Source: Saccoglossus kowalevskii (lineage: Eukaryota; Hemichordata; Enteropneusta; Harrimaniidae). From it: 33,089 nt of DNA. The translations under genes and the position numbers were made by a program. Positions 32 through 33,089 of the stretch are shown one piece after another. The notes under the pieces are model-generated. The model did not search any database and was not told where the DNA came from. It saw only the letters and a list, made by a program, of their open reading frames with translations. The number at the start of each line of letters is the position of its first letter. Within the stretch, counting starts at the first letter, position 1. Location: contig NW_003133350.1 in the NCBI RefSeq assembly GCF_000003605.2, forward strand, positions 349,671-382,759, written 5' to 3'.

Positions 32-305
32 TGAGCGTTCCTGTGCAACAAAATACAATAAATATTTCAATTCGCGTAGATGGAGAATTATTATTCTTAA
101 TGAAGCAGAGTTTCGGCAGGCCTTTGAAAACGTGTATCAAGCAATAGTCACAATATCCACGTATAAGAGCAGGCGAAGAATGTGGATGGTATATCTGTAT
201 ACTATCAATTAAATATGAATCGCATGGATGCAACGCGTTATTTTAAATCGATAAATTATTATATAATATTCTTAATAAAAATCGCTCACCAATTTGTTGC
301 TTTAA

Positions 306-431
306 AGCGCGGTGGTCGTCGCGCAGCGCGTATTCGAATTTCATGTAAATAAACAATTTTATTTTACACGCGTTGTATACGTCGCAATGAGTCTAATATC
401 GAACAGGGCGCGGGACGATGACTGCCGCCCT
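306..431. mobile_element. Palindromic TTAA-flanked MITE, copy 1
   Basis: This 126-bp element is flanked on both sides by TTAA (302-305 and 432-435). Its left end AGCGCGGTGGTCGTCGCGC is mirrored by the right end, which reads AGGGCGGCAGTCATCGTC on the other strand. The inverted similarity extends imperfectly toward the middle, so the whole unit could fold back on itself. A second copy lies at 31806-31922. It is too short to code; an open frame crossing it at 312-647 is incidental. TTAA target duplication is known for piggyBac-type elements, but the ends do not show the usual CCC start, so the superfamily is left open. Confidence 0.75.
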
Positions 432-435
432 TTAA

Positions 436-2459: not shown

Positions 2460-2529
2460 ATTAGAGCCAAAATTGAAAAAAACACCAATAAAAAAATAAA
2501 AGAATAAATAAATAATAGATAATTAAAAA

Positions 2530-2617
<88 letters not shown>

Positions 2618-2868
2618 AATGAAAAAATAAAAGAATAGATAAATAGATAAAACAAGAAATAAACACATTAAAGAATATATAGAAATAGAACAATAATTAA
2701 AAGAATACAATAATTAAAGAATAGAAAAATGAATAAAAAAATGAATCAGCTTATAAAACGAACGTGCGTGCGTGCGTTCGTTCGTGTGCTTGTGTGTTTG
2801 CTTATTTATTTGTGTCAATATGCAAACATACTATATTATATTATTCCATTCATTCATTCATTCATTTA
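2460..2868. repeat. Cluster of tetranucleotide microsatellites
   Basis: The core is an uninterrupted TAAA array at 2531-2618 (22 units). It is flanked on both sides by decayed AAAT/GAAT-type repeats (2480-2530 and 2619-2740). Directly downstream come CGTG/CGTT units (about 2761-2790), then TTTG/TATT units, and a CATT array (about 2847-2868). The open frame at 2405-2710 on the minus strand, rich in YLFI repeats, is a translation of this array and not a gene. Confidence 0.9.

Positions 2869-7549: not shown

Positions 7550-7620
<71 letters not shown>
7550..7620. repeat. AT dinucleotide microsatellite, 71 bp
   Basis: An uninterrupted alternating A/T run. The minus-strand open frame at 7524-7748 with alternating I/Y residues is its translation and is not a gene. 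Such perfect length suggests it is currently unstable. Confidence 0.95.
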
Positions 7621-7625
<5 letters not shown>

Positions 7626-16587: not shown

Positions 16588-16589
16588 TA

Positions 16590-17539
16590 CAGCCAAAACA
16601 AGTTCAGCTCGGACGTTCAGTTGCGAGACATATAAAAAAAACGCAGCCAGTGATACATTTTGAAAATAAAAATACAAAATAAACGCAATCAGAGGCGCCG
16701 ACTACGCGCGTTTGAAATAAAAAGAACGCGTTATGACACAGACTCACCAGCCTCTTTCACTCACGCAATATAATTATGCTAATTCCCAAAACACTTATAT
16801 TTAATACCTTGACGAAAAACACCACAAGTAAAATGTAAATCAGACTTGTAATTACTAGTAACTCAACTCGAACGCAATATTCATCACTGTAAAAGTGGAT
16901 AAATTCGAACCAGCCTGCTCATGACCGGAGACGTCCGGTTGTCTTCGTTGATAACTCGCCAATTTACCATAATCGTGGTGGTGAACTGTTTAGCTGATTT
17001 TCAAAAGATGGACATTCAATTCATCCCAACTTATTTGAATATTTTTTCAGAAATTTGAGACATTGTTCAAAAAATCCTGTACAGTTATATGTCTGATGTC
17101 AACTAATAATACGCAATTATCCAGCCAGTACTAGACATTATTACTGATACTAAACATGTTTTGTATTGGGAAGTTGGATAGTTGAACATGTAGTCCCCGG
17201 ACGTGTAGTAGAATGTTTAGTTTGATAATTTATAAACATATATTCAGCGTGAGACTGCTGCTTTCAAGTTGTGTTAATACAAAGATGATTTAAACTTGTC
17301 CCTTCCGTTGCCAACGTATTCAATATACGAAACTAGCACGTGTGTGTGCGTTTGCGTGAGTGAAACTTGAAGATGCAGGTGAGATTTCTCGTCGCAACGC
17401 GTTTTATTTAATTTCAACGCGTGTGGTCGGCGCCTTTGATTGCGTTTATTCTGTTCGTTCATACTCGAAATCTATCGCTGGCACCGTTTATTTTGTCATT
17501 TCTCACAGCTGAATGTTCAAGCTGACTTTGTTTTGGCTG
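16590..17539. mobile_element. TA-flanked DNA element with ~180-bp inverted arms
   Basis: The left arm (16590-16768) and right arm (17352-17539) are imperfect reverse complements over roughly 180-190 bp. Both ends begin CAGCCAAAACAA, and each is flanked by TA (16588-16589 and 17540-17541). Inside each arm lie matching blocks TAAACGCAATCA, GGCGCCGAC, AACGCGTT and TTTCACTCACGCAA. The ~580-bp centre holds no transposase-like frame. TA target duplication is typical of the Tc1/mariner superfamily, so this is inferred to be a non-autonomous member with long inverted ends. Arm divergence suggests moderate age. Confidence 0.7.
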
Positions 17540-17541
17540 TA

Positions 17542-18634: not shown

Positions 18635-19304
18635 ATTTTCTGGTGTGAAATGTAGACTAGACCGCAAATTAATGACGTTTTTGTTGTATGGTTAAATTTT
18701 GTTTTGGCGAACGAAACATACTGATTTTACCGCTAACGTATGTTTAAAATCAAATAATCTGTGACTCACAGATTATTTGATTTTAAACATACGTTGGCGG
18801 TAACCCCAACTTCTCAAACGGTTTTAGTTTGATCTTCAACAAAGACTAGGTCAACTGAATAACAAACAACAATTTATATTGGGGGGATGTTCATGATATT
18901 ATAATATATTCCACTGCTAATAGCTCGTCCTTCATTCACTGCAAGTTTCCTTGGACTTATATTTAAAATGCAATTAAATGGGTTTAAGTCCGCTGATTTT
19001 TCTGCCGATGTTCATTTTCGTTTCATACGTCACACGTAATTGTCTCGCCGTTTTTAATTTTTCAACCTTAATTTGTCAGCTACTGGAAATTATTAATCAA
19101 CATGTAGTCAAAGGACGTCGAAAACCGCAATGAAATGACATTTTTGGGCATAGTGCATGATTAAGTCTAATTATCCTTTAGTCCAGAAAGCTATCAATCG
19201 CAATGCCAGTAAATATTTCTTTTGTCTGATCTCCACAGTGTTTAATTGGCCGAAAAATTCTCGTTTTATGACAATTGTGGAAAAATAAAAACGTTAAACG
19301 AAGT
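18635..19304 (+). repeat. Duplicated ~0.65-kb segment, copy A
   Basis: This runs collinear with 20147-20777 at roughly 93-96% identity by eye, from TTTCTGGTGTGAA at the left to CGTTAAACGAAGT at the right. It differs from copy B by small substitutions, a shorter G run (6 against 11), and an extra inverted segment (18727-18803). The ends show no inverted repeats or clear target duplication. It may be a local segmental duplication or two copies of an unrecognised element. No coding frame is conserved. Confidence 0.85.
18727..18803. repeat. Near-perfect hairpin, 38-nt arms, 1-nt loop
   Basis: The left arm 18727-18764 and right arm 18766-18803 are reverse complements with one mismatch and a single central C. 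In duplicate copy B only the left-arm sequence is present, followed directly by AACCCACAACTTCTC. The right arm is therefore an inverted copy of the left arm added in copy A. At the single mismatch the right arm preserves the base found in copy B. Confidence 0.9.
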
Positions 19305-20146: not shown

Positions 20147-20777
20147 ATTTCTGGTGTGAATGTAAACTAGATCGCAAATTAATGACGTTTTTGTTGTATT
20201 GTTTAATTTTGTTTTGGCGAACGAAACATACCGATTTTACCGCCAACGTATGTTTAAAATCAAATAATTTGTGAACCCACAACTTCTCAAACGGTTTTAG
20301 TTTGATCTTCAACAAAGACTAGGTAAACTGAATAACATATCGAATTTATATTGGGGGGGGGGGATGTTCATGATATTATAATATATTCCACTGCTAATAG
20401 CTCATCCTTCATTCTCTGCAGTTTTCCTTGGACTTATATTTAAAATGCAATTAAATGGGTTAAAGTCCGCTGATTTTTCTGCCGATGTTCATTTTCGTTT
20501 CATACGTCACACGTAATGGTCTCGCCGTTTTTAATTTTTCAACCTTAATTTGTCAGCTACTGGAAATTATTAATCGACATGTAGTCAAAAGACGTCGACA
20601 ACCGCAAAGAGATGACATTTTTGGGCATAGTGCATGATTAAGTCTAATTATCCTTTAGTCCAGAAAGCTATCAATCGCAAAGCCAGTAAATAATTCTTTT
20701 GTCTGATCTCCACAGTGTTTAATTGGCCGAAAAATTCTCGTTTTATGACAATTGTGGAAAAAAACGTTAAACGAAGT
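20147..20777 (+). repeat. Duplicated ~0.65-kb segment, copy B
   Basis: Collinear with copy A at 18635-19304 and in the same orientation, about 1.5 kb downstream. It lacks the inverted hairpin arm and has a longer G run (11 G at about 20353). This copy best represents the original arrangement around the hairpin site. Confidence 0.85.
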
Positions 20778-21198: not shown

Positions 21199-21438
21199 AT
21201 GCTGCCTCAAAGATTGGTATATTTTGCAATGGCGTTGATGATAGTGCTTTCCACTAATCGTGAAGTATATGCCAATAAAACGGAGCTACATATTCTGGGT
21301 TTATTTCCAATGGAAACACCGGCCTGGCCTGGTGGCCAAAGTAACCTACCAGCTGCTGAACTGGGCTTGCTGCACGTCAACGATCGGGATGACATTTTAC
21401 CTGGCTACGAGTTAAAGATGTTATGGGGAGACAGTAAG
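21199..21438 (+). CDS. GABA-B receptor-like protein, first coding exon (partial gene)
   Basis: Encodes residues 1-80 of a class C G-protein-coupled receptor of the GABA-B family, a cell-surface receptor whose extracellular Venus-flytrap domain binds ligand. Residues 1-25 form a signal peptide (hydrophobic core around residues 6-18, predicted cleavage after VYA), followed at once by an NKT glycosylation sequon. From residue 29 the mature sequence starts the first strand and helix of the flytrap lobe 1: HILGLFPM, then WPGGQ, then AAELGLLHVND, DILPGYEL and GDSK. The Trp in WPGGQ (residue 43) corresponds to the ligand-contacting Trp65 of human GABBR1b. The exon ends AAG with donor GTAAAC, phase 0. 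The start is chosen because it opens the signal peptide. In this exon the residues resemble GABBR1 more than GABBR2. Confidence 0.9.
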
Positions 21439-22574
21439 GTAAACTTGTTAATTGTCGTGTAAATGAGAAATAATATTTGGTTTGGTGAAACACTTTATAC
21501 AATTGTGTTAAAAGTCGATGTTCGTCGCGTGTTTGGATAATTTCTAGTAAACAATTTTGCACACTTTGAATACGTTGCTATGGAGATAAGACGAGACTAG
21601 CGCTCAATGACATTGCAATCCTCGAGTATTTGGGTGCATGAACCAGAAGGTTTTGTCGATTCGTAAAACGCAATCGGGCGTACGGCGCTAAACGGCATAT
21701 GTATTCTTTTTGAAATGATGGTGATTGAAACGATTTACATATATAAACCAGGAACTACACCAATAACCGTGGTTAAATGAAATAGGTCCTCGAAATAGCA
21801 ACAATACAATATCAGTGTTGTTGGCTGGCACATCAGGAAATTGTCGTTTTAGGTGTAGCTAAGTAGGGTACAGCTAGTCGTCATCGTGACACTCAGAGGT
21901 TTCTCGCATATTGATATGTTTTACTTTCAGCTGTGATCAAAACATGATTCAGGAAGTTACGCTGTCGTCTGTTCGCATCAAGCTGTTCCCCTTTCATTAA
22001 CGGAATCTAGGGACGTTACAACATTTTTTGCCACGCTCCCAACATGCATATCAATGTAAAGTAGTATTACGTGTAAATATTGTGTCGTATCTTTACTTTC
22101 ATTACACTGTATGCGCAAAAGTTACAACACCGAAAAATGTTTGGTTTTGCCATAATCACTCATTAATGTGTTACTACAAGCAAGAAAACATACATATTCC
22201 GATGATTAATACGAGAATACATCAAAATATGCACTCAGGCAGTACGGGCCAGAGTGTAGTAGTACTGACGATATTCCTATATCAATTATTCTTAGTTTGA
22301 CGTAGAAGAACACTCGGGGATTAAATAAATAATTCCAATCCTATTTGTTAGTGGCGAACTGTGGGTCTTATCATTGGTTTATATATTGTTAATAGTTGCT
22401 TTGTTATTTCGCCATGGATCACGACTTGATGGCGACGTTAATCCCGTTATATTATTTATAAAATGTATCAGTTTCACCACTAGAGGTTTAACAAATTGTA
22501 TTGACATATATCAATTTGTCTTAGTAAATTAGGAGAATTACCATTATATTGTGACAACGATTATACTGATTTGA

Positions 22575-22835
22575 CAGCCAGCTACCCCCTCTCTGGCAAC
22601 ATCTAGAGACGTGACAGCGATTTGATTTCGCATTCAGCTATCCGTTCTCGTAAACATCGTGGTACGTAATGGAGGTGTGTTTTCACATCCTACTGTGCCC
22701 AAGCTGGCAACGTGCAAGTACATGACAAAAGTGCGTTTTCACCCAAGCCCCTTCCCTACCCGTTGTAGGTGATAGACATGACAAACGAGGTTCTCCAATT
22801 TATGCCATGTTAAGTATCTGTTTTCACATCCTTAG
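22575..22835 (+). repeat. Diverged tandem units with TTTTCAC(ATCC) ends
   Basis: Three neighbouring units of about 70-110 bp share the order CTGGCAAC, (G/C)ATGACA or CGTGACA, then GTTTTCACATCC or GTTTTCACCC. A related fragment with CCCTTTCATTAACGGAATC and GGGACGTTAC lies at about 21986-22022. The same series is present in duplication copy 2 (about 28917-29150), so these units predate the large duplication. Confidence 0.45.
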
Positions 22836-24385
22836 ATTTAACACATTTCACACTAAAATACTTATATATAATCCCAAGTTATTTTCTTGTTGACGTCATA
22901 GAGTCACAGTTTTGTATAAATCCGAGCCGTAGCTGATGTTCGATATTGGCGGTAATCCCATGTGTCTCCCCAATTGCTTAATTCGTCCTCAGCAACTTCA
23001 TAGAATTTGAAAAATACATGCATTTATTCACGGAATTAGTCTAAGTCATTGCACATACCTAGTATACTAATTGTGTACACAAGCCGTAGTTATTTCTTGT
23101 TCTAGTTTCGAAATCTCTGAGCAAACTTTAGTAGCACTCGCAATTTAAAAGTTCGGCAGTTCGTGACGTCGCACTATGATATATACTTTGGACCTGACCT
23201 GAATCAAACCAGACTAGGAGATACTATCGTTATACATGACATTGTGTAAATACTGTGTAGTAATATGTGTTGTGCATCCCTCACTAACGTCTATCGTATT
23301 TTGTCGAAGATATTACCAATATATGAGTCTATACACCAAAAGCGAGTAAAAATACAAAAGAATCAGTGATCGAGGTGAACTACAATAACAAATTGTAGGA
23401 TAATATATATATATACACATTACGTGATGCGTTTTTTGTGCCAGATAATCTGAAATGACATTTAAGATTTATCTCATTTACAACAGTTATCAGTTACAAC
23501 AGTTTGTTAGCTCAAACACCAGCAAGCATTATAAAAGCGTGTACTCCGATTATTCAATTCATCAATTCATGTAACATTCATAGTCATCAAATTGTCGACA
23601 GTTATTTGTTTTCTTGAGCGAGATCCAGTGACGTGCTAGCGATTCTGTGTAAATTACAAAAATATATTATTATTATTATAGGATTTTGTATATTTATATA
23701 TATATAATACGCTTATTTTGCTTCTTAAGAAATCAAGAAGAATTCAATCTCATGGTGGCAAATCGTCTATTATATGAGATGTATGCACTAAATTTGCCTT
23801 TAGATAATGTGATATGTCAGCTACAAAACGATTAACACGCATTTCCTGATAATGCCCGAGATGCACGTGTGCGGCAAAACGTTTTTCCATGAGCTTATAA
23901 TAAAGTCTAAATGTCATGCTGCTATAACTGTCATGTTACCTATAACTGGCGCCGCCATAATGTACTGACAGCGTTATACTTCTAAGAATATGAACCTTAT
24001 TTTAACTATAAATACATTTCTAGTGCCATCCAATTTCTGATTTTCTCAACAAATATTGTTATCGTTAACTTACTTTGAAATTTCATGCATGAGCAAACCC
24101 GTCGGGATCAATGATTACTTACGAATTGTATTCTTCTATCTTTTGAATATGCCTGCTGATCATTGTAATGATGTGCTCCTTGGAAAAGGGAGTTACTCTT
24201 TTCGATGCATTGAATCAATGGTAAATCAGCGCACGTATACCTATAAGCAATTTATAACGCGGACTTGTAATAAGCACATTCATATGTGTTAAATGTAGTT
24301 GCCACGAAAGCTGTTCATTGAGCTATGTCACTAATAAAAACCACGCTCATCTTCAAACATGTAGAATGCACACTTCTAGATTTCA

Positions 24386-24470
24386 ATAGCCCTGGCGTTA
24401 TTATAAACAATGGTCACTTATACATATATAATTCTGTAGCACTGGCGTTATCATAAGCGATATCCACTTT
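24386..24470 (+). repeat. Two-unit ~50-bp tandem repeat
   Basis: Two adjacent units each carry GGCGTTAT(T/C)ATAA followed by a (G/C)TCACTT or TCCACTT end. The pair is also present at about 30065-30152 in duplication copy 2, so it arose before the large duplication. Confidence 0.55.
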
Positions 24471-25369
24471 ATCAGGCGTAGACAGCCGTGTTTGTAGTAA
24501 TGGTAGTATCTACTTTGATACGTGCATGATGCTTTAGGCATAGCGGAAGTAAGGGCAATATTGATCAGCACATGTGGTTTTTCTGAGGATAATGCGGTGT
24601 ATAGTGTATATACTTTTTCCTGTCAGTTATCTAACATTGTTTGATTGTAGATGATTAATAAAACTGATGATGAAATATTACAAGATCTGAATTAATATGA
24701 GATTGTTACGAGGATACGCGTACAATGTAAATCTTGGAAGCACTTTCGTGGTTTTCATTAAAACACACCGTTGTCATTGAAAGCACATTGTTGTAATTAA
24801 AAACATGTGTATTATGTAATAAAACACCTTATTTTCTATCAAAACAGTAGTAGTATTTTTAGAAAAGTGTTTTGGGAGTTATTGAAACACTTTTTGATGA
24901 AAATTAAGCACATGGCAAACACACAAAAATACACTCATTCAAAATAAAACACGGGGACATAACTATGTCATTGAAGTGATTATTGATAGAACATTTGTGC
25001 ACTAGTGCATCCACCTTCATGAAAGCAGTATTAACAAAACTGAGTGGAAAGTCTGGAGACTTGTAAGTAAACATTATGGTATATATCCCAACTAGACAAT
25101 CACCGAAGGTGACGTAATTCAACGCATAATGATATGAGTCATGACATCACCTTAAGAAAACAATTTTCTGTCAAGCGCCAGGTTGCGGGAGAATTAATTG
25201 TATGTACGCTTGTATGGTCTTACTAACCTAAGTACAACTAGAAATCGAGACACGTGGCGAATTAAGTACCTCGTGACCTAACGGATTTTGATACTCTGCA
25301 TTTTGTAAATAGTAGTTGTAGTTTAAATCTCATCTGAATTTCTCATGTGATTTAAACATTTTTGTTCAA

Positions 25370-26470: not shown

Positions 26471-27960
26471 GTTACACGTTACGAAACGTGTGAAAGTGTT
26501 ATTAATAAAGCCAGCGTTTGCATTGGCCTCTATTCATTTCATTATATGCGTGTTGTTATGATAACTGATTTAACTCAAACGTTTACAGGACCAGATAATT
26601 TCATACTGCATAACTTCCTTGCCGACATCCCCCAGAGACATGATATGAGTACCCAAATACAATCATAGAAATCGATAACTATGGTTTAATTTCCCCTGCG
26701 AACTTTATTTATGGGACGTTACTTATTTCCGGAGTTTTCCGAAGACGTTCGGATCTCACTCGGTTCTGACGGTGGCGCCATAGTTGTCTGGTGAGTTGCG
26801 TTGTCAAATTCAATGGAATTTTCGGGTTATTCGTGGTATCACGGACTTATTAAATGGTAGCAGAGCATAAACATGGCAAATAATTACAATAATCCACCCG
26901 TGTTTGCTTCCGATGCGGTTTACGAAACATGAAAAATGAAGTTAAAATATGGAGACTGATGACCGAGATCGAGAAAAAGAAACAGGCGTTAGCGGTAACT
27001 CTGTAACTCCCCGGGCAAGCCAAAGCGAAGACGCTAGATATACAATTAAGGAAGTGAGCTTAATAAGGAATATGGTTTAGATATTTAGCTTACACGTGAC
27101 TGGGAAAAGTGATTTTAGCGGGAATGGCGCCTCTGGCATCACGATAAAAGAGGAATTGGCATATGTCAGAGAAAGATTTAATAATCCTAAGTTCTCCCGT
27201 TTCAAAAAAGTGTTACCATCGATCAAGCAACCCAAAAACGTACACAAATTTGGATAACTCAGAAACCCCTAGAGGTACAAATCCTTTGGATAGATATGGG
27301 AGGAGAACCAGATGCATGGTCTGCCAGTCAGTATTCCACTGGGCTAATTGTTCAGACAAAAATGAACAAAATGTTCAAGAGAATGATCCGATTAATGAGA
27401 TATGTAATAAAACTCTACTTACTACTTACTAAAGGACAGCCTGATAATGAGATTTTAATGACTGAGTCATTTGGGTGTGCTATAATTGATACTGCATGTA
27501 TACGCACTGTGTGTGGAAGGAAATGGCTGGCAAATTATGTGGATGATCTTGACACCATACAGAAAAAGGCTTTTACCAGTAATAACGCCATCAAATATTG
27601 TGGTGGTAAAAAGATAACTTCAAAGGATAATGTCATACCACCGGCAAAGATAGGAAACAATGTTTGCAAGATTGATACAGAAGTGGTAGATGTAGATATA
27701 CCTCTGTTGCTGAGTAAAACATCAGAGCTGAGACAAAATTAGACATTTGCAACGACAAAGCAGAAATGCCTTGATGGTACAGAACCTGAGGTGACTGAAA
27801 GTGAAATGATACTGATTGATGAGAATATAAACAGAGTGGATCAAAAGAAAATCCTGATTAAATTGCACCTCAAATTTCTAGTAAAATCACTTTTAAAAGT
27901 GTTGTGACAATAAGCACTTTTATATACATGTTACTGATGGAAACCCTTTTCAAAATGCTA
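26471..27960 (+). mobile_element. LTR-retrotransposon fossil, Ty1/copia-like, broken
   Basis: A degraded, incomplete element in sense orientation to the receptor gene. A possible 5' LTR remnant (starting TGTTACACG, about 26471-26854) is followed by a primer-site-like TGGTAGCAGAGC at about 26855, resembling the initiator-Met tRNA site common in Ty1/copia elements. A gag-like region follows from 26873 to about 27430, with a zinc-knuckle-like Cys/His cluster at about 27313-27352. A retropepsin-like region lies at about 27470-27742 (DTAC near 27488, DIPLLLSK near 27700). Weak similarity to the start of the integrase region lies near 27850. Reverse transcriptase, the rest of integrase and a 3' LTR are not seen. 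It carries several breaks and looks moderately old. Confidence 0.6.
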
Positions 27961-28099: not shown

Positions 28100-31000
28100 G
28101 TGACACGAATACAATGTCAGTGTTGTTAGCTGGCACATCATATAAACAGGAAACGATAGTTTGAAATGTTGCCAAGTGTGATATGACTAGTCATCATCAT
28201 CATAACACTCTGGGTTTTCTCGTATATAGATTGGTTTTACATTCAGCTGTGATCACAGCATGATTTAGCTACATTCTATCAAGCTGTCCCACTTACTTTT
28301 TCGGAATCCAGGAACGTTACATTTTTTAAAATTTAAATTCAAGTGTTGGCACACTCCCATCATGAATATCACAGCACTATAGCATTGCTTAAACCAATAT
28401 TATGTCTTTACTTTCATTATACTGTATGCGAAAAATTACCATAATATTGCCATAATCTCTCATTAATTTATTACTACAAGCAGGACAAATGTATATACAC
28501 GAGAATATATCAAACTATGCTATCAGACAGTAACGTATTGACCGACGCGTGTAGTGTAGTAATACTAACGATGTTCTCATGAGAATCATCAAGAACCTTT
28601 GAAGATTAGAGCAAAATAACTCCAATCCTAGCTGCTAGCGGTGAACTGCGGGAAGAAATCATTGGTTTATATATTGTTAATAGTTGTTAGTTTATTTCGA
28701 TATAGATAACGACTTGATGGCGATGTTAATTATTTATAGAAATGGCTACTAGAGGTTTAAGATAATTATATTGGCAGAAATTCGTTCGACTGAGTCAATT
28801 ATAATGACACTAGTCCTTATCAGGAGTATTACAGCGTATAGTCAGAATAAGCTGTATCTCAGGCCATCTAATACTAGTTTACAAGGTCAAGACAACGATT
28901 ATTGTGTTTTAAAAGCCAGCTACCCCCTCTCTGGCAACATCTAGGAACGTGACACGATGTAATTTCGCATTCAGCTATCCACTTTCATAAACAGCATGGT
29001 ACGTAATGACGATGTGTTTTCACATTCACAACAGTGTGTTTTCACCAATGACCCTTACCAACCCGTGGTGGATGATGAACGAGACAAGATTCGTTCTCAC
29101 ATATATGTCATGTTATGTCTAAATTACAAGTATCTGTTTTCACAACAAGGGTTTTAATACACTCCACCAATTCAATGCCGCGCAAACTGTTTTTAAGATG
29201 ACGTTAGTTATGACAGCCACAGTTTTTTTGTATAAATCCGAGCAGTAGTTGATATTTTATATTCGTGGTAATCACGTATGCCTGCCTAATTCCTTATCTC
29301 AAAATCAAACTACAAACGTATATTGTGGGATTGTTTTACCGTTTAAAGGTTATGACAGTTATTTGTATTTGAGAGTTAATGACGTGCCAGCGATTTTATG
29401 CAAACTACAAAATTATATTATAGGATTATGTATATTATATAATAGATGGTAGAACATCGTATATACTACTATACGTAAACGCACAATTTTCCCTCAGATA
29501 ATGTGACATATCAGCTACAAAACCATTGAATAACGATTAACAAGCATTCTCTGCTAATGCCCGAGAATCACGTGTGCGTCGAAACGTATTTTGTGCTTAT
29601 AAATGGAAACTAAATGTCCGAATGTTTCATATAACATATAACTGACTGCGTCATACTGTTCAGTGTGAAGAATATAAATCTTATTTTGCCTATAAACACA
29701 TTTTCCAATTTCCAATTTTCTATTTATAATATTGTTATCGTTTACTTGCCTTGATGTTTCATGCATGTGCAAACCCGCCAGGATGAATGATTATTAACGA
29801 ATTGTATTCTTCTATCTTTGAATATGCCTGCTGATCACAAAAAGAGTTACTCGCTTTGATGCATCGAATCAATGGTAAATCAGCGCACCTACACTTAAGA
29901 GCATTTTAGAAAGTAGGCATGTAATAACCACGATTACATGTGTTAAATTTAGTTGCCACGACAGCTGTTCATTGAGCCATGTCAATATTAATTCCACGCA
30001 CACCTTCAAACGCGAATACAGTTGTCCATTCGTCAGACAATGTTCATTTCAAACTTTTAGAATTCAATACCCCTGGTGTTATTATTAACAATGGTCACTT
30101 TAATACATATATAATTCTGTAGCCATCGCGTTATCATAAGCAATATTCACTTTATTAGGCGTAGACAGCCGATGCATGATATCTTAGGCATAGTGGTAGT
30201 AAAGGCAATATCTGTACATGTGATTCTTTTTGTGGTAATGCGATGTATAGTGTATACATTTTTTGCTGATAATGAAACATTACAAGACTGAATTAAGATG
30301 CAGGTTCGTGGGCACTTGGGAGTGAATTTTTTTTTTTGCTTTTTATTATCCAAACAGTCTTGGCTATAAAATTTTGTAGAATTGTGAATAGTGGAACATA
30401 CTCAAAAGACGATTTTAAAATATAGATAACAGGTGCAAACATTCACTCTTTTGAATGCTTAGCAAGATTTAGCAAGGCTGTACATAAATAATAAAAAAAA
30501 CATGGTAAACAAAAAATGACGGGATCTCCATATTATGCACTATATTTAACTTTTAACAAAACGATAATACATTTAAATTTGAAATTGTTACAGCCATTTT
30601 AATTATGAGCATTAGCAAACTTCTTACTGAGTGAATTGTTATGCAAATTAGCAATTATCTCAGCTTCTGTTTAGTGCACATCCCAGAACTTTAAAAAAAT
30701 AGCTCCTAGATGCTTTGACCTTTTGTTTTAAAATTTTCACAAATAATTAACAATGTGTTTATCTTCAAAACGCCGTCAGGGCATTGTTTTTGGTTGAACA
30801 GTGTTACAACAATCGTACAGACAACTAGCCTGGGTGTTAATTTATGCATAAACTGGAAGTATTGAAATTTGAGCTGCTGCCCTACAAAATTGACAACTGG
30901 TAGACAGTTTTCAAGACGGCACTTTCTTCATAGTAAACAGATGTACCCGTAAACCAATTTTGACAGGAAACAGAAGCATGGTTTAGAAGCTTTTTTTTAA

Positions 31001-31525: not shown

Positions 31526-31663
31526 TGCATTGAAGGAGCTGCCGTCGACGCCATGTATAAACTCTTGTACAGCCAACCAACAAAGATAGTTATCATTGGT
31601 CCAGCGTGCTCACCGGCAGCCCAAGCAACAGCAAAGGCGGCACGGTATTGGAACATAGCTCAG
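31526..31663 (+). CDS. GABA-B receptor-like protein, second coding exon
   Basis: Encodes 46 residues (81-126 of the predicted protein), continuing lobe 1 of the Venus-flytrap domain. It opens with Cys and includes MYKLLYS, KIVIIGPACSP and AAQATAKAARYWNIA. This aligns without gaps to the human GABBR1 stretch running from CDPGQ to MWNLIV. The first Cys and the Cys of PAC match the conserved lobe-1 disulfide pair (Cys103 and Cys129 of human GABBR1b). The Ser after the second Cys matches Ser130, a ligand contact. The acceptor is TATACTTCAG and the donor is CAG with GTAACG; both junctions are phase 0. An ATG at 31553 is internal to the exon and is not a start. Confidence 0.93.
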
Positions 31664-31805
31664 GTAACGTATACATACATAATCTACTGGGTTATTACGA
31701 CTGATATTATATTAAAATTGAAGCCTGGGAATTAAAAACAGTTCTATCCGTATGCTGCAGATATATTTATTTAAATGCAATCCTTTATGAGCTGAGATCA
31801 TTTAA

Positions 31806-31922
31806 AGCGCGGTGGTCGTCGCGCAGCGCGTGTTCGAATTTAATGTAAATAAACAATGTATTTTACACGCGTTTTACGTCGCTGTGAGTCCCATATCGAA
31901 CAGGCGCGACGACTGCCGCCCT
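31806..31922. mobile_element. Palindromic TTAA-flanked MITE, copy 2, in intron 2
   Basis: Shares with the copy at 306-431 the left 24 bases, the TTCGAATTT.ATGTAAATAAACAAT block, TTTTACACGCGTT, TATCGAACAGG and the right end GACTGCCGCCCT. It is flanked by TTAA (31802-31805) on the left and TTGA (31923-31926) on the right. It is 9 bp shorter than copy 1 through small gaps. Same orientation as copy 1, though the element is nearly symmetrical. Confidence 0.8.
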
Positions 31923-32027
31923 TTGAGCTGCATGCGGGTTGAATGTATTTTTTTGCAATTTCATAATATTCTTAATATATATTAATCACATATCTAATCA
32001 TATTTAATTATAAATTATTATGAATGC

Positions 32028-32265: not shown

Positions 32266-32430
32266 ATGTCATATGCAGCTGTGGAGCCATCTCTATCAGA
32301 TATAGACACGTATCCATATTTTGTCAGACTTAAACCATCATCTAGATCACGTGGTTTCGTGCAAATACGATTCTTGCAGCATTTCGGATGGAACAAAGTA
32401 GGAACTCTCACAGAAAACGTATATGCTACG
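32266..32430 (+). CDS. GABA-B receptor-like protein, third coding exon
   Basis: Encodes 55 residues continuing the flytrap domain: MSYAAVEPSLSD, TYPYFVRLKPS, then FLQHFGWNKVGTLTENVYAT. It follows TTTCATCATCAG and joins exon 2 in phase 0. The stretches resemble human GABBR2 (LSFAATTPVLAD, YPYFFRTVPS, WKRVGTLT) more than GABBR1. Positions equal to the GABBR1 ligand contacts Gly151, Ser153 and His170 are Ala, Val and Lys here. The donor is placed at ACG with GTATGA (GT at 32431) because ENVYAT still aligns with the family. An alternative phase-0 donor lies 12 bases upstream (AAC with GTATAT, GT at 32419). Read-through gives one Val and then a stop. The exon's last 15 bases belong to the first unit of the minisatellite. 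Confidence 0.88.
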
Positions 32431-33089
32431 GTATGAGAACGTATATACTACGATATAGCAACGAATATGTCATGGTAAAATTATGTATATACTACGATAT
32501 GGTAACCTATATGCTACGGTATGAGAATATATATGGTACTGTATGAGAAAGTATGTGCTACGGTATGTTAACGTATATGCTGCGTTATGGTGACATATAT
32601 GCTACGGTATGAGAACATATATGCTTCGGTATGAGAACATATATGCTACGGTATGAGAACATATATGCTATGGTATGAGAACATATATATGCTACGGTAT
32701 GAGAACATATATATGCTACAGTATGAGAACATATATGCTATGGTATGAGAACATATATGCTTTGGTATGAGAACATATATGCTACGGTATGAGAACATAT
32801 ATGCTACGGTATGAGAACATATATGCTATGGTATGAGAACATATATGCTACGGTATGAGAATGTATATGCTATGGTATGAGAACATATATGCTACGGTAT
32901 GAGAACATATATGCTATGGTGTGAGAACACATATGCTATGGTATGAGAACATATATGCCACGGTATGAGAACGTATATGCTATGGTATGAGAACATATAT
33001 GCTACGGTGTGATAACATATATGCTATGGTATGAGAACATATATGCTACGATATGAGAGCATATATGCTACGGTGTGAGAACATATATA
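32416..33089 (+). repeat. 22-bp minisatellite spanning the exon 3 splice donor
   Basis: About 30 head-to-tail units of 22 bp, beginning AACRTATATGCTACGG and ending TATGAG, extend to the window edge and beyond. Unit 1 (32416-32437) straddles the exon-intron border: 15 coding bases plus 7 intronic bases. Units 2-8 (to about 32590) are diverged; later units are nearly identical, varying mainly as CTACGG, CTATGG or CTTCGG. A few units are 24 bp through an extra AT. Many units carry the same donor-like ACG-GTATGA sequence as the true splice site. Confidence 0.95.

What the first reader, a model, noticed from the sequence alone, without database searches (positions are those of the whole stretch)
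32416..33089. A minisatellite made from an exon's own 5' splice site
The first 22-bp unit is the end of coding exon 3 plus its donor: 15 coding bases (codons N-V-Y-A-T) and 7 intronic bases. About 30 further units run through intron 3, each carrying the exon tail and many carrying the same ACG-GTATGA donor. The true donor is thus followed by dozens of decoys at 22-bp steps. Choosing a later donor would add in-frame TGA stops from the repeats, because TATGAG follows each unit. Possible outcomes include splice competition, nonsense-containing isoforms that lower receptor level, and variation between individuals as the array changes length. The older, diverged units lie nearest the exon and the homogeneous ones lie away from it. 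This fits birth at the splice site followed by outward expansion.
Basis: partly seen in the sequence, partly recalled or inferred. Interest (0 to 1): 0.85.

Follow-up and report, generated by a model that had tools for sequence, protein, structure and literature searches.

The report
Tandem repeat copied from a splice site
In an animal receptor gene the last bases of an exon together with its splice signal recur about thirty times in a row at the start of the next intron; the repeat is real, but the same arrangement is already known from human and lancelet genes, and whether it changes splicing here is untested.

Summary
The window carries the first three coding exons of a GABA-B-type receptor gene of an unidentified animal. 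A 22-bp minisatellite (30 full units plus a partial one, cut off by the window end) starts inside exon 3. Unit 1 is the last 15 coding bases plus GTATGAG of the intron. GT is kept in register in 25 of 29 later units, GTATGA in 20, the whole ACG|GTATGA in 9. In simple models most decoys match or nearly match the true donor. Any donor beyond it would retain the in-frame TGA at 32434. The age gradient is not simple: unit 1 is near-consensus, units 2-8 diverged, units 9-30 homogeneous. Diverged edges occur in tandem arrays anyway, so they do not prove birth at the splice site; a G shared by the exon and most near units gives modest support.
This is a known kind: amphioxus 'mirages', and human repeats over exon donors in ABCA7, CBS (24 exonic + 7 intronic bases) and IFI6. 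Those range from regular splicing (amphioxus) through rare next-unit use with length-dependent skipping of the following exon (ABCA7) to repeat donors in use (IFI6). I call it a new member of a known kind. Splicing, polymorphism and orthologues could not be tested.

The parts
21199..21438 (+). coding exon 1 of a GABA-B-type receptor gene (80 codons, donor AAG|GTAAAC)
   Evidence: Joined to exons 2 and 3 it aligns in one stretch to human GABA-B subunit 1 (E 1.3e-37, query residues 5-176); alone it has no Pfam match at E 0.5
31526..31663 (+). coding exon 2 (46 codons, phase 0, donor CAG|GTAACG)
   Evidence: ANF_receptor Pfam match of exons 2+3 (E 5.8e-21); GABA-B chains in the PDB
32266..32430 (+). 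coding exon 3 (55 codons, phase 0), preceded by CATCATCAG
   Evidence: Aligns to human GABA-B subunit 2 from residue 1 to 52 of 55, that is two codons into repeat unit 1; to human subunit 1 only to residue 50
32416..32437 (+). repeat unit 1: last 15 coding bases of exon 3 plus GTATGAG of intron 3
   Evidence: 1 edit from the array consensus
32431..32436 (+). presumed authentic 5' splice site ACG|GTATGA; model U1 duplex -4.4 kcal/mol, weaker than the donors of exons 1 (-6.8) and 2 (-9.4)
   Evidence: use of the site is inferred, not shown by RNA
32434..32436 (+). in-frame TGA retained by any transcript spliced at a later donor
32438..32591 (+). units 2-8, diverged (mean 5.0 mismatches); GT lost in units 2, 4 and 8
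32592..33079 (+). units 9-30, homogeneous (mean 1.1 mismatches); GT lost only in unit 29
33080..33089 (+). partial unit 31 at the window end: the array is not seen to end
32419..32424 (+). weak alternative donor AAC|GTATAT inside unit 1; would remove 4 codons in frame
   Evidence: U1 -2.1; PWM 1.86 against 6.31 for the presumed authentic donor

Best explanation
It is an exon-intron-boundary minisatellite. A tandem duplication of 22 bp that straddled the exon 3 donor placed a copy of the exon tail and donor in intron 3; unequal exchange or slippage then multiplied the copies to at least 30. The first unit stays close to the founder because it is coding and carries the working donor. The next units drifted, and units further in are kept alike by ongoing turnover. 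The spliceosome most probably uses the first donor in most transcripts, because exon definition favours the short exon with its own exonic signals. A small fraction probably uses a nearby copy, retains TGA at 32434 and is lost. The array is then mainly a tolerated, mutable passenger. Shown: anatomy, reading frame, donor copies and their model strengths, divergence pattern. Inferred: order of events, splice choice, effect on receptor level, length variation.
For: Array and boundary position. Exon 3 is receptor-coding into unit 1. Unit 1 is near-consensus among diverged neighbours: at the rates of units 2-8 the chance of at most 1 change in 22 sites is 0.03-0.05. The exon state G at position 4 is found in 5 of 7 near units and 2 of 22 far units (Fisher p 0.003, one site, units not independent). 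Of 73 changes from the exon unit in units 2-30, 35 are transitions at its two CpG sites; most of these are two changes shared by many far units, so they are few events. The last five residues NVYAT fit the family better than most alternatives: rank 2 of 17 stop-free registers of the unit, 3-5% of random 5-mers as good (weak). Amphioxus arrays of this kind are said not to interfere with regular splicing (PMC3087553, passages; PMC3902484, passage). In human ABCA7 retention of one repeat unit seems to be 2 +/- 1% of transcripts and does not change with length (PMC5954066, passages).
Against: No RNA, no second individual and no orthologue was available. Most decoys equal or nearly equal the presumed donor in a simple model and several exceed it, and for two comparable donors the intron-proximal one is often favoured (PMC6002489, passages). 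Other relatives are less quiet: IFI6 is said to use two downstream repeat units as donors, giving three mRNA species; human tandem repeats at exon-intron boundaries often also have transcripts that keep the repeat in the exon (PMC2812944, passages); in CBS a 68-bp junction duplication leads to strong use of the more distal site; in ABCA7 skipping of the next exon rises with array length and alternative transcripts can exceed the canonical one in brain. The founder reading rests on one informative site and a weak residue test in which another register (GMRTY) scored slightly better.
Confidence: 0.72

Rival explanations
1. Functional decoy array: the copies draw U1 snRNP away from the true donor, so that transcripts are spliced to later units, retain the stop and are degraded; array length thereby sets receptor level.
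For: 25 of 29 later units keep GT; by the U1 duplex model 14 of these 25 are equal to or stronger than the presumed donor, 9 more lie within 0.2 kcal/mol and 2 are weaker. That donor is the weakest of the three in the window. Later donors retain the TGA at 32434. ABCA7 expression falls with VNTR length (PMC5954066, passages). IFI6 uses later repeat units as donors.
Against: In amphioxus genes with such arrays splicing is reported as regular. In ABCA7 the use of the next unit does not depend on length; what rises is skipping of the next exon. GT losses in units 2-8 fit neutrality: 3 units lost, 2.6 expected from random placement, so there is no sign of selection for or against the decoys.
Confidence: 0.15
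2. Invader: an independent intronic minisatellite grew up to the exon and replaced its end, so that the gene now splices from a repeat-born donor.
For: The last residues NVYAT lie in a variable part of the family and fit only weakly; another register of the unit fits as well.
Against: Homology to GABA-B subunit 2 runs to codon 52, two codons into unit 1. The G shared by exon and near units, with CpG decay in the far units, points outward from the exon. No copy with up to 3 mismatches lies elsewhere in the window, and no exact match to a 20-base pattern in two collections (these are viral and prokaryote contigs, so this is weak).
Confidence: 0.1
3. Assembly artefact at a contig end.
For: The array runs into the window end; whether that is a contig end is not known.
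Against: 23 of 30 unit sequences are distinct and 10 of the 28 units of 22 bp carry a base seen in no other, so the array is not one unit copied by the assembler; only its length is in doubt.
Confidence: 0.02

Closest known systems
Amphioxus 'mirages' (Adh3, globins BflGb6 and BflGb9, TnC, PGBD5)
   Same: Minisatellite-like tandem copies spanning an exon-intron boundary; many but not all copies keep AG/GT signals; in BflGb6 interior units homogenised and boundary units left out; units of 10-72 bp in Adh3 (PMC3087553 and PMC3902484, passages)
   Different: The host species of this window is unknown; length instability and regular splicing were reported there, not tested here; some of those arrays copy the acceptor side
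Human CBS 31-bp VNTR, c.1444_1467+7(16_21)
   Same: Unit of 24 exonic plus 7 intronic bases by its name, 16-21 copies, polymorphic (PMC2630376, passages); here 15 exonic plus 7 intronic bases
   Different: Shorter exonic part here; allele lengths are known for CBS, and reduced enzyme activity is known to me only from the title of a paper it cites
Human ABCA7 intron 18 VNTR
   Same: 25-bp unit whose first copy supplies the exon 18 donor, about 12-427 copies; use of the next unit's donor seen, with a frameshift (PMC5954066, passages)
   Different: There the unit begins with the intronic GT and the passages do not say that the exon tail is part of it; the length effect is on skipping of the next exon
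Human IFI6 (6-16) minisatellite
   Same: Downstream repeat units serve as splice donors, giving three mRNA species (PMC4526556, passage; Turri et al. 1995 seen only as a citation)
   Different: Original paper not held; unit length and copy number not checked here

Membership tests
Exon-intron-boundary minisatellite ('mirage' class, in the descriptive sense) | Tandem array whose first unit includes the end of a coding exon and its splice signal | tested here: met
Exon-intron-boundary minisatellite ('mirage' class, in the descriptive sense) | Many, not all, further copies keep the splice dinucleotide | tested here: met
   25 of 29 keep GT in register
Exon-intron-boundary minisatellite ('mirage' class, in the descriptive sense) | Homogenised interior, boundary units left out | tested here: met
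   units 2-8 mean 5.0, units 9-30 mean 1.1 mismatches; only one edge is in the window, and unit 1 itself is near-consensus
Exon-intron-boundary minisatellite ('mirage' class, in the descriptive sense) | Length instability between alleles or cells | not testable with these tools
   one sequence only
Exon-intron-boundary minisatellite ('mirage' class, in the descriptive sense) | Regular splicing in spite of the copies | not testable with these tools
   no RNA data
Amphioxus mirages in the narrow sense | Host is a cephalochordate | not tested
   The genome search did not answer in seven identical attempts, and the collections I searched for the repeat or the gene hold viral and prokaryote contigs
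GABA-B receptor (class C GPCR) ligand-binding domain | ANF_receptor sequence closest to GABA-B subunits | tested here: met
   PF01094 5.8e-21; all 17 PDB sequences with E up to 1e-10 are GABA-B chains
GABA-B receptor (class C GPCR) ligand-binding domain | Seven-helix domain and subunit-type residues | not testable with these tools
   later exons lie outside the window

The most novel reading that the evidence does not exclude
The array is a lattice of near-identical donors spaced 22 nt apart, less than the 35-nt stretch that U1 snRNP is reported to protect (23 nt upstream, 12 nt downstream; PMC6002489, passage). Neighbouring units therefore could not be bound at once. The presumed authentic donor happens to be followed by a dead unit (unit 2, GT lost), with the next GT in unit register 44 nt away (weaker GTs out of register lie at 10 and 38 nt). 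Array length and the parity of intact units would then tune how often U1 settles on the true donor, making receptor dosage a length-dependent, heritable and mutable trait.
Probability: 0.05. Interest if true: 0.65.

Novelty: new member of a known kind. Interest (0 to 1): 0.3.

Why it matters
It is a clean natural case of one real donor in front of at least 29 graded copies of itself at fixed spacing, with a built-in nonsense reporter. That suits the open question of how the spliceosome chooses among comparable donors (PMC6002489 states that the reason for intron-proximal preference is not known; passage). If array length varies, it may change the dose of a receptor. It adds another gene, and possibly another lineage, to a class that my literature searches (open-licence papers only) turned up in lancelets and humans. 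As a kind of object it is not new. I made no search for repeats in GABA-B receptor genes.

Tried and rejected
RNA structure: a stretch over the exon end and units 1-11 folds no better than shuffles (z -0.22), an interior stretch only slightly better (z -1.61, 15 of 200 shuffles as good); no structural role is claimed. Higher-order repeat of two units (C/T alternation at position 14): not supported, lag-2 p 0.34. Selection against decoys near the exon: not supported. Exon end further upstream: rejected, since homology to GABA-B subunit 2 runs to codon 52 and the sites at 32398 and 32419 score lower than the one at 32431 in both models, the first only slightly by U1 energy (-4.2 against -4.4). 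Similar arrays at exons 1 and 2: none found. Rfam at gathering scores and tRNA scan of the window: no hits. Relatives of the receptor in viral contigs: 7 pattern matches, none confirmed. The unit in viral and prokaryote contigs: 0 exact matches. Six further open frames and exon 1: no Pfam family above its cut-off.

Scoring limits: the 5' splice-site weight matrix and the U1 5'-end sequence are recalled, human-like values; no trained scorer such as MaxEnt was on hand. In one search the two extra bases of units 13 and 14 were dropped when units were laid on 22 columns; these two units were left out of the count of private bases.

Full report
What is in the window. The sequence reads as animal nuclear DNA with low G+C (30-41% per kb). 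Three exons on the + strand, 21199-21438, 31526-31663 and 32266-32430, all phase 0, join into 181 residues that align in one stretch to the ligand-binding domain of GABA-B receptors (best PDB match human subunit 1, E 1.3e-37, query residues 5-176; all 17 sequences with E up to 1e-10 are GABA-B chains). Exons 2 and 3 match Pfam ANF_receptor (5.8e-21). Against human GABA-B subunit 2, exon 3 aligns from its first residue to residue 52 of 55, two codons into the first repeat unit; against subunit 1 the match stops at residue 50. Exon 4 and the intron 3 acceptor lie beyond the window. The species is unknown: the search of the window's own genome did not answer in seven identical attempts.

The array. 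Tandem Repeats Finder reports 32416-33088, period 22, 30.4 copies. A segmentation gives 30 full units and ten bases of a thirty-first, with 23 distinct sequences among the 30. Unit 1 is AAC GTA TAT GCT ACG of exon 3 plus GTATGAG of the intron. Controls: 26 core matches in the window, all in the array, against a mean of 0.07 in 100 shuffles. The boundary 22-mer matches at most 15 of 22 in bases 1-32266, and the boundary 22-mers of exons 1 and 2 reach only 12 and 13 in the 652 bases after them. The array is therefore far beyond chance, and the boundary unit belongs to it.

Donor copies. In units 2-30, GT is kept in register in 25 of 29, GTATGA in 20 and the complete ACG|GTATGA in 9. With a recalled U1 5' end and ViennaRNA duplex energies, the presumed authentic donor scores -4.4 kcal/mol, weaker than the donors of exon 1 (-6.8) and exon 2 (-9.4). 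Of the 25 copies with GT, 14 score -4.4 or stronger, 9 lie within 0.2 kcal/mol and 2 are weaker. With a recalled weight matrix, 17 of the 25 score at least as high as the presumed authentic site (my count on the table). These are crude models, but they agree that the decoys are not intrinsically inferior.

Reading frame. The frame of exon 3 runs on as GTA TGA, so any donor downstream of 32434 retains an in-frame stop at 32434-32436 (the call lists the donors before 32620 and after 33060, and the rest follow by construction). The cause is the first stop, not a stop in each unit; since 22 is not a multiple of three, later units fall in other frames. A weak site at 32419 (AAC|GTATAT) would instead shorten the exon by four codons in frame.

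Age pattern. Compared with the consensus of the far units, unit 1 has 1 mismatch, units 2-8 have 6, 8, 7, 1, 3, 5 and 5, and units 9-30 have 0-3, mean 1.1 (Mann-Whitney p 0.0007; units are not independent, and the extra bases of units 13 and 14 are left out). Rank correlation over all units is weak (p 0.098); unit 1 and unit 5 are near-consensus. Diverged edges and homogeneous interiors are expected of tandem arrays and are described for an amphioxus case, so this pattern cannot by itself tell where the array was born. Two facts add modest support for the exon as founder. First, the only site at which the exon and the far consensus differ (position 4, G in the exon) is G in 5 of 7 near units and 2 of 22 far ones; it is part of a CpG, and the far state is the expected decay product. 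Second, of 73 changes from the exon unit in units 2-30, 35 are transitions at its two CpG sites, though most of these are two changes shared by many far units and so few events. The residue test is weak: NVYAT ranks second of 17 stop-free registers, behind GMRTY, and 3-5% of random 5-mers do as well.

How it most likely works. A 22-bp tandem duplication straddling the donor was multiplied by unequal exchange or slippage. Unit 1 is held by coding and splice function; at the rates of units 2-8 the chance of at most one change in its 22 sites is 0.03-0.05. The loss of GT in three of the seven near units is what random mutation gives (2.6 expected), so there is no sign that the copies are selected for or against. 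The most likely outcome is use of the first donor with low leakage into nearby copies. This is inferred from published relatives, which do not all agree. For: in amphioxus Adh3, globin, TnC and PGBD5 genes the copies are said not to interfere with regular splicing (PMC3087553 and PMC3902484, passages). In human ABCA7, whose 25-bp VNTR supplies the exon 18 donor, retention of one unit appears to be 2 +/- 1% and does not depend on length (PMC5954066, passages). Against: in ABCA7 skipping of exon 19 rises and expression falls with length, and alternative transcripts together exceed the canonical one in most samples of one brain region. IFI6 is said to use two downstream units as donors (PMC4526556, passage). 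Human repeats at exon-intron boundaries often have transcripts that keep the repeat (PMC2812944, passages). In CBS a 68-bp junction duplication favours the more distal site (PMC2630376, passages). The general preference for the intron-proximal of two comparable donors, whose cause is called unknown in PMC6002489 (passages), also counts against; PMC5585400 (passages) shows that SR-protein sites can shift such choices.

Comparison with what is known. The arrangement belongs to a described class. The CBS VNTR is named c.1444_1467+7(16_21), that is 24 exonic plus 7 intronic bases in 16-21 copies. IFI6 uses repeat units as donors (the 1995 original is not held). Amphioxus has a name for such arrays, 'mirages'. 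In the descriptive sense this array meets the features that can be tested from one sequence; instability and splicing cannot be tested. I did not file it under amphioxus, because the host is unknown.

Verdict. New member of a known kind; interest 0.3. The most novel reading, a U1 lattice with spacing below the reported U1 footprint, is speculative and cheap to test with minigenes.

Noticed in passing
window 21803-22980 and 23752-24622 versus 28108-29296 and 29446-30268: Intron 1 holds a diverged direct duplication of more than 2 kb in three aligned pieces (66-70% identity), perhaps two copies of one transposable element.
   Followed up: no
window 18637-19304 and 20148-20777: Direct repeat of about 670 bp at 89% identity upstream of exon 1.
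   Followed up: no
window 301-433 and 31801-31924: Short dispersed repeat, 86% identity over 133 bp, one copy in intron 2.
   Followed up: no
window 16588-16768 and 17352-17541: Inverted repeat of about 190 bp at 76% identity.
   Followed up: no
window 27191-27742: Longest open frame listed for the window (183 aa, + strand, stop to stop), inside intron 1; no Pfam family above its cut-off (VHL at E 0.014, below cut-off). Its GCAIIDTACIRTVCGRKW stretch recalls a retrotransposon protease; this is from memory and untested.
   Followed up: partly
window 2487-2746 and 7550-7625: Long AATA-type (65 copies) and TA (38 copies) simple repeats.
   Followed up: no
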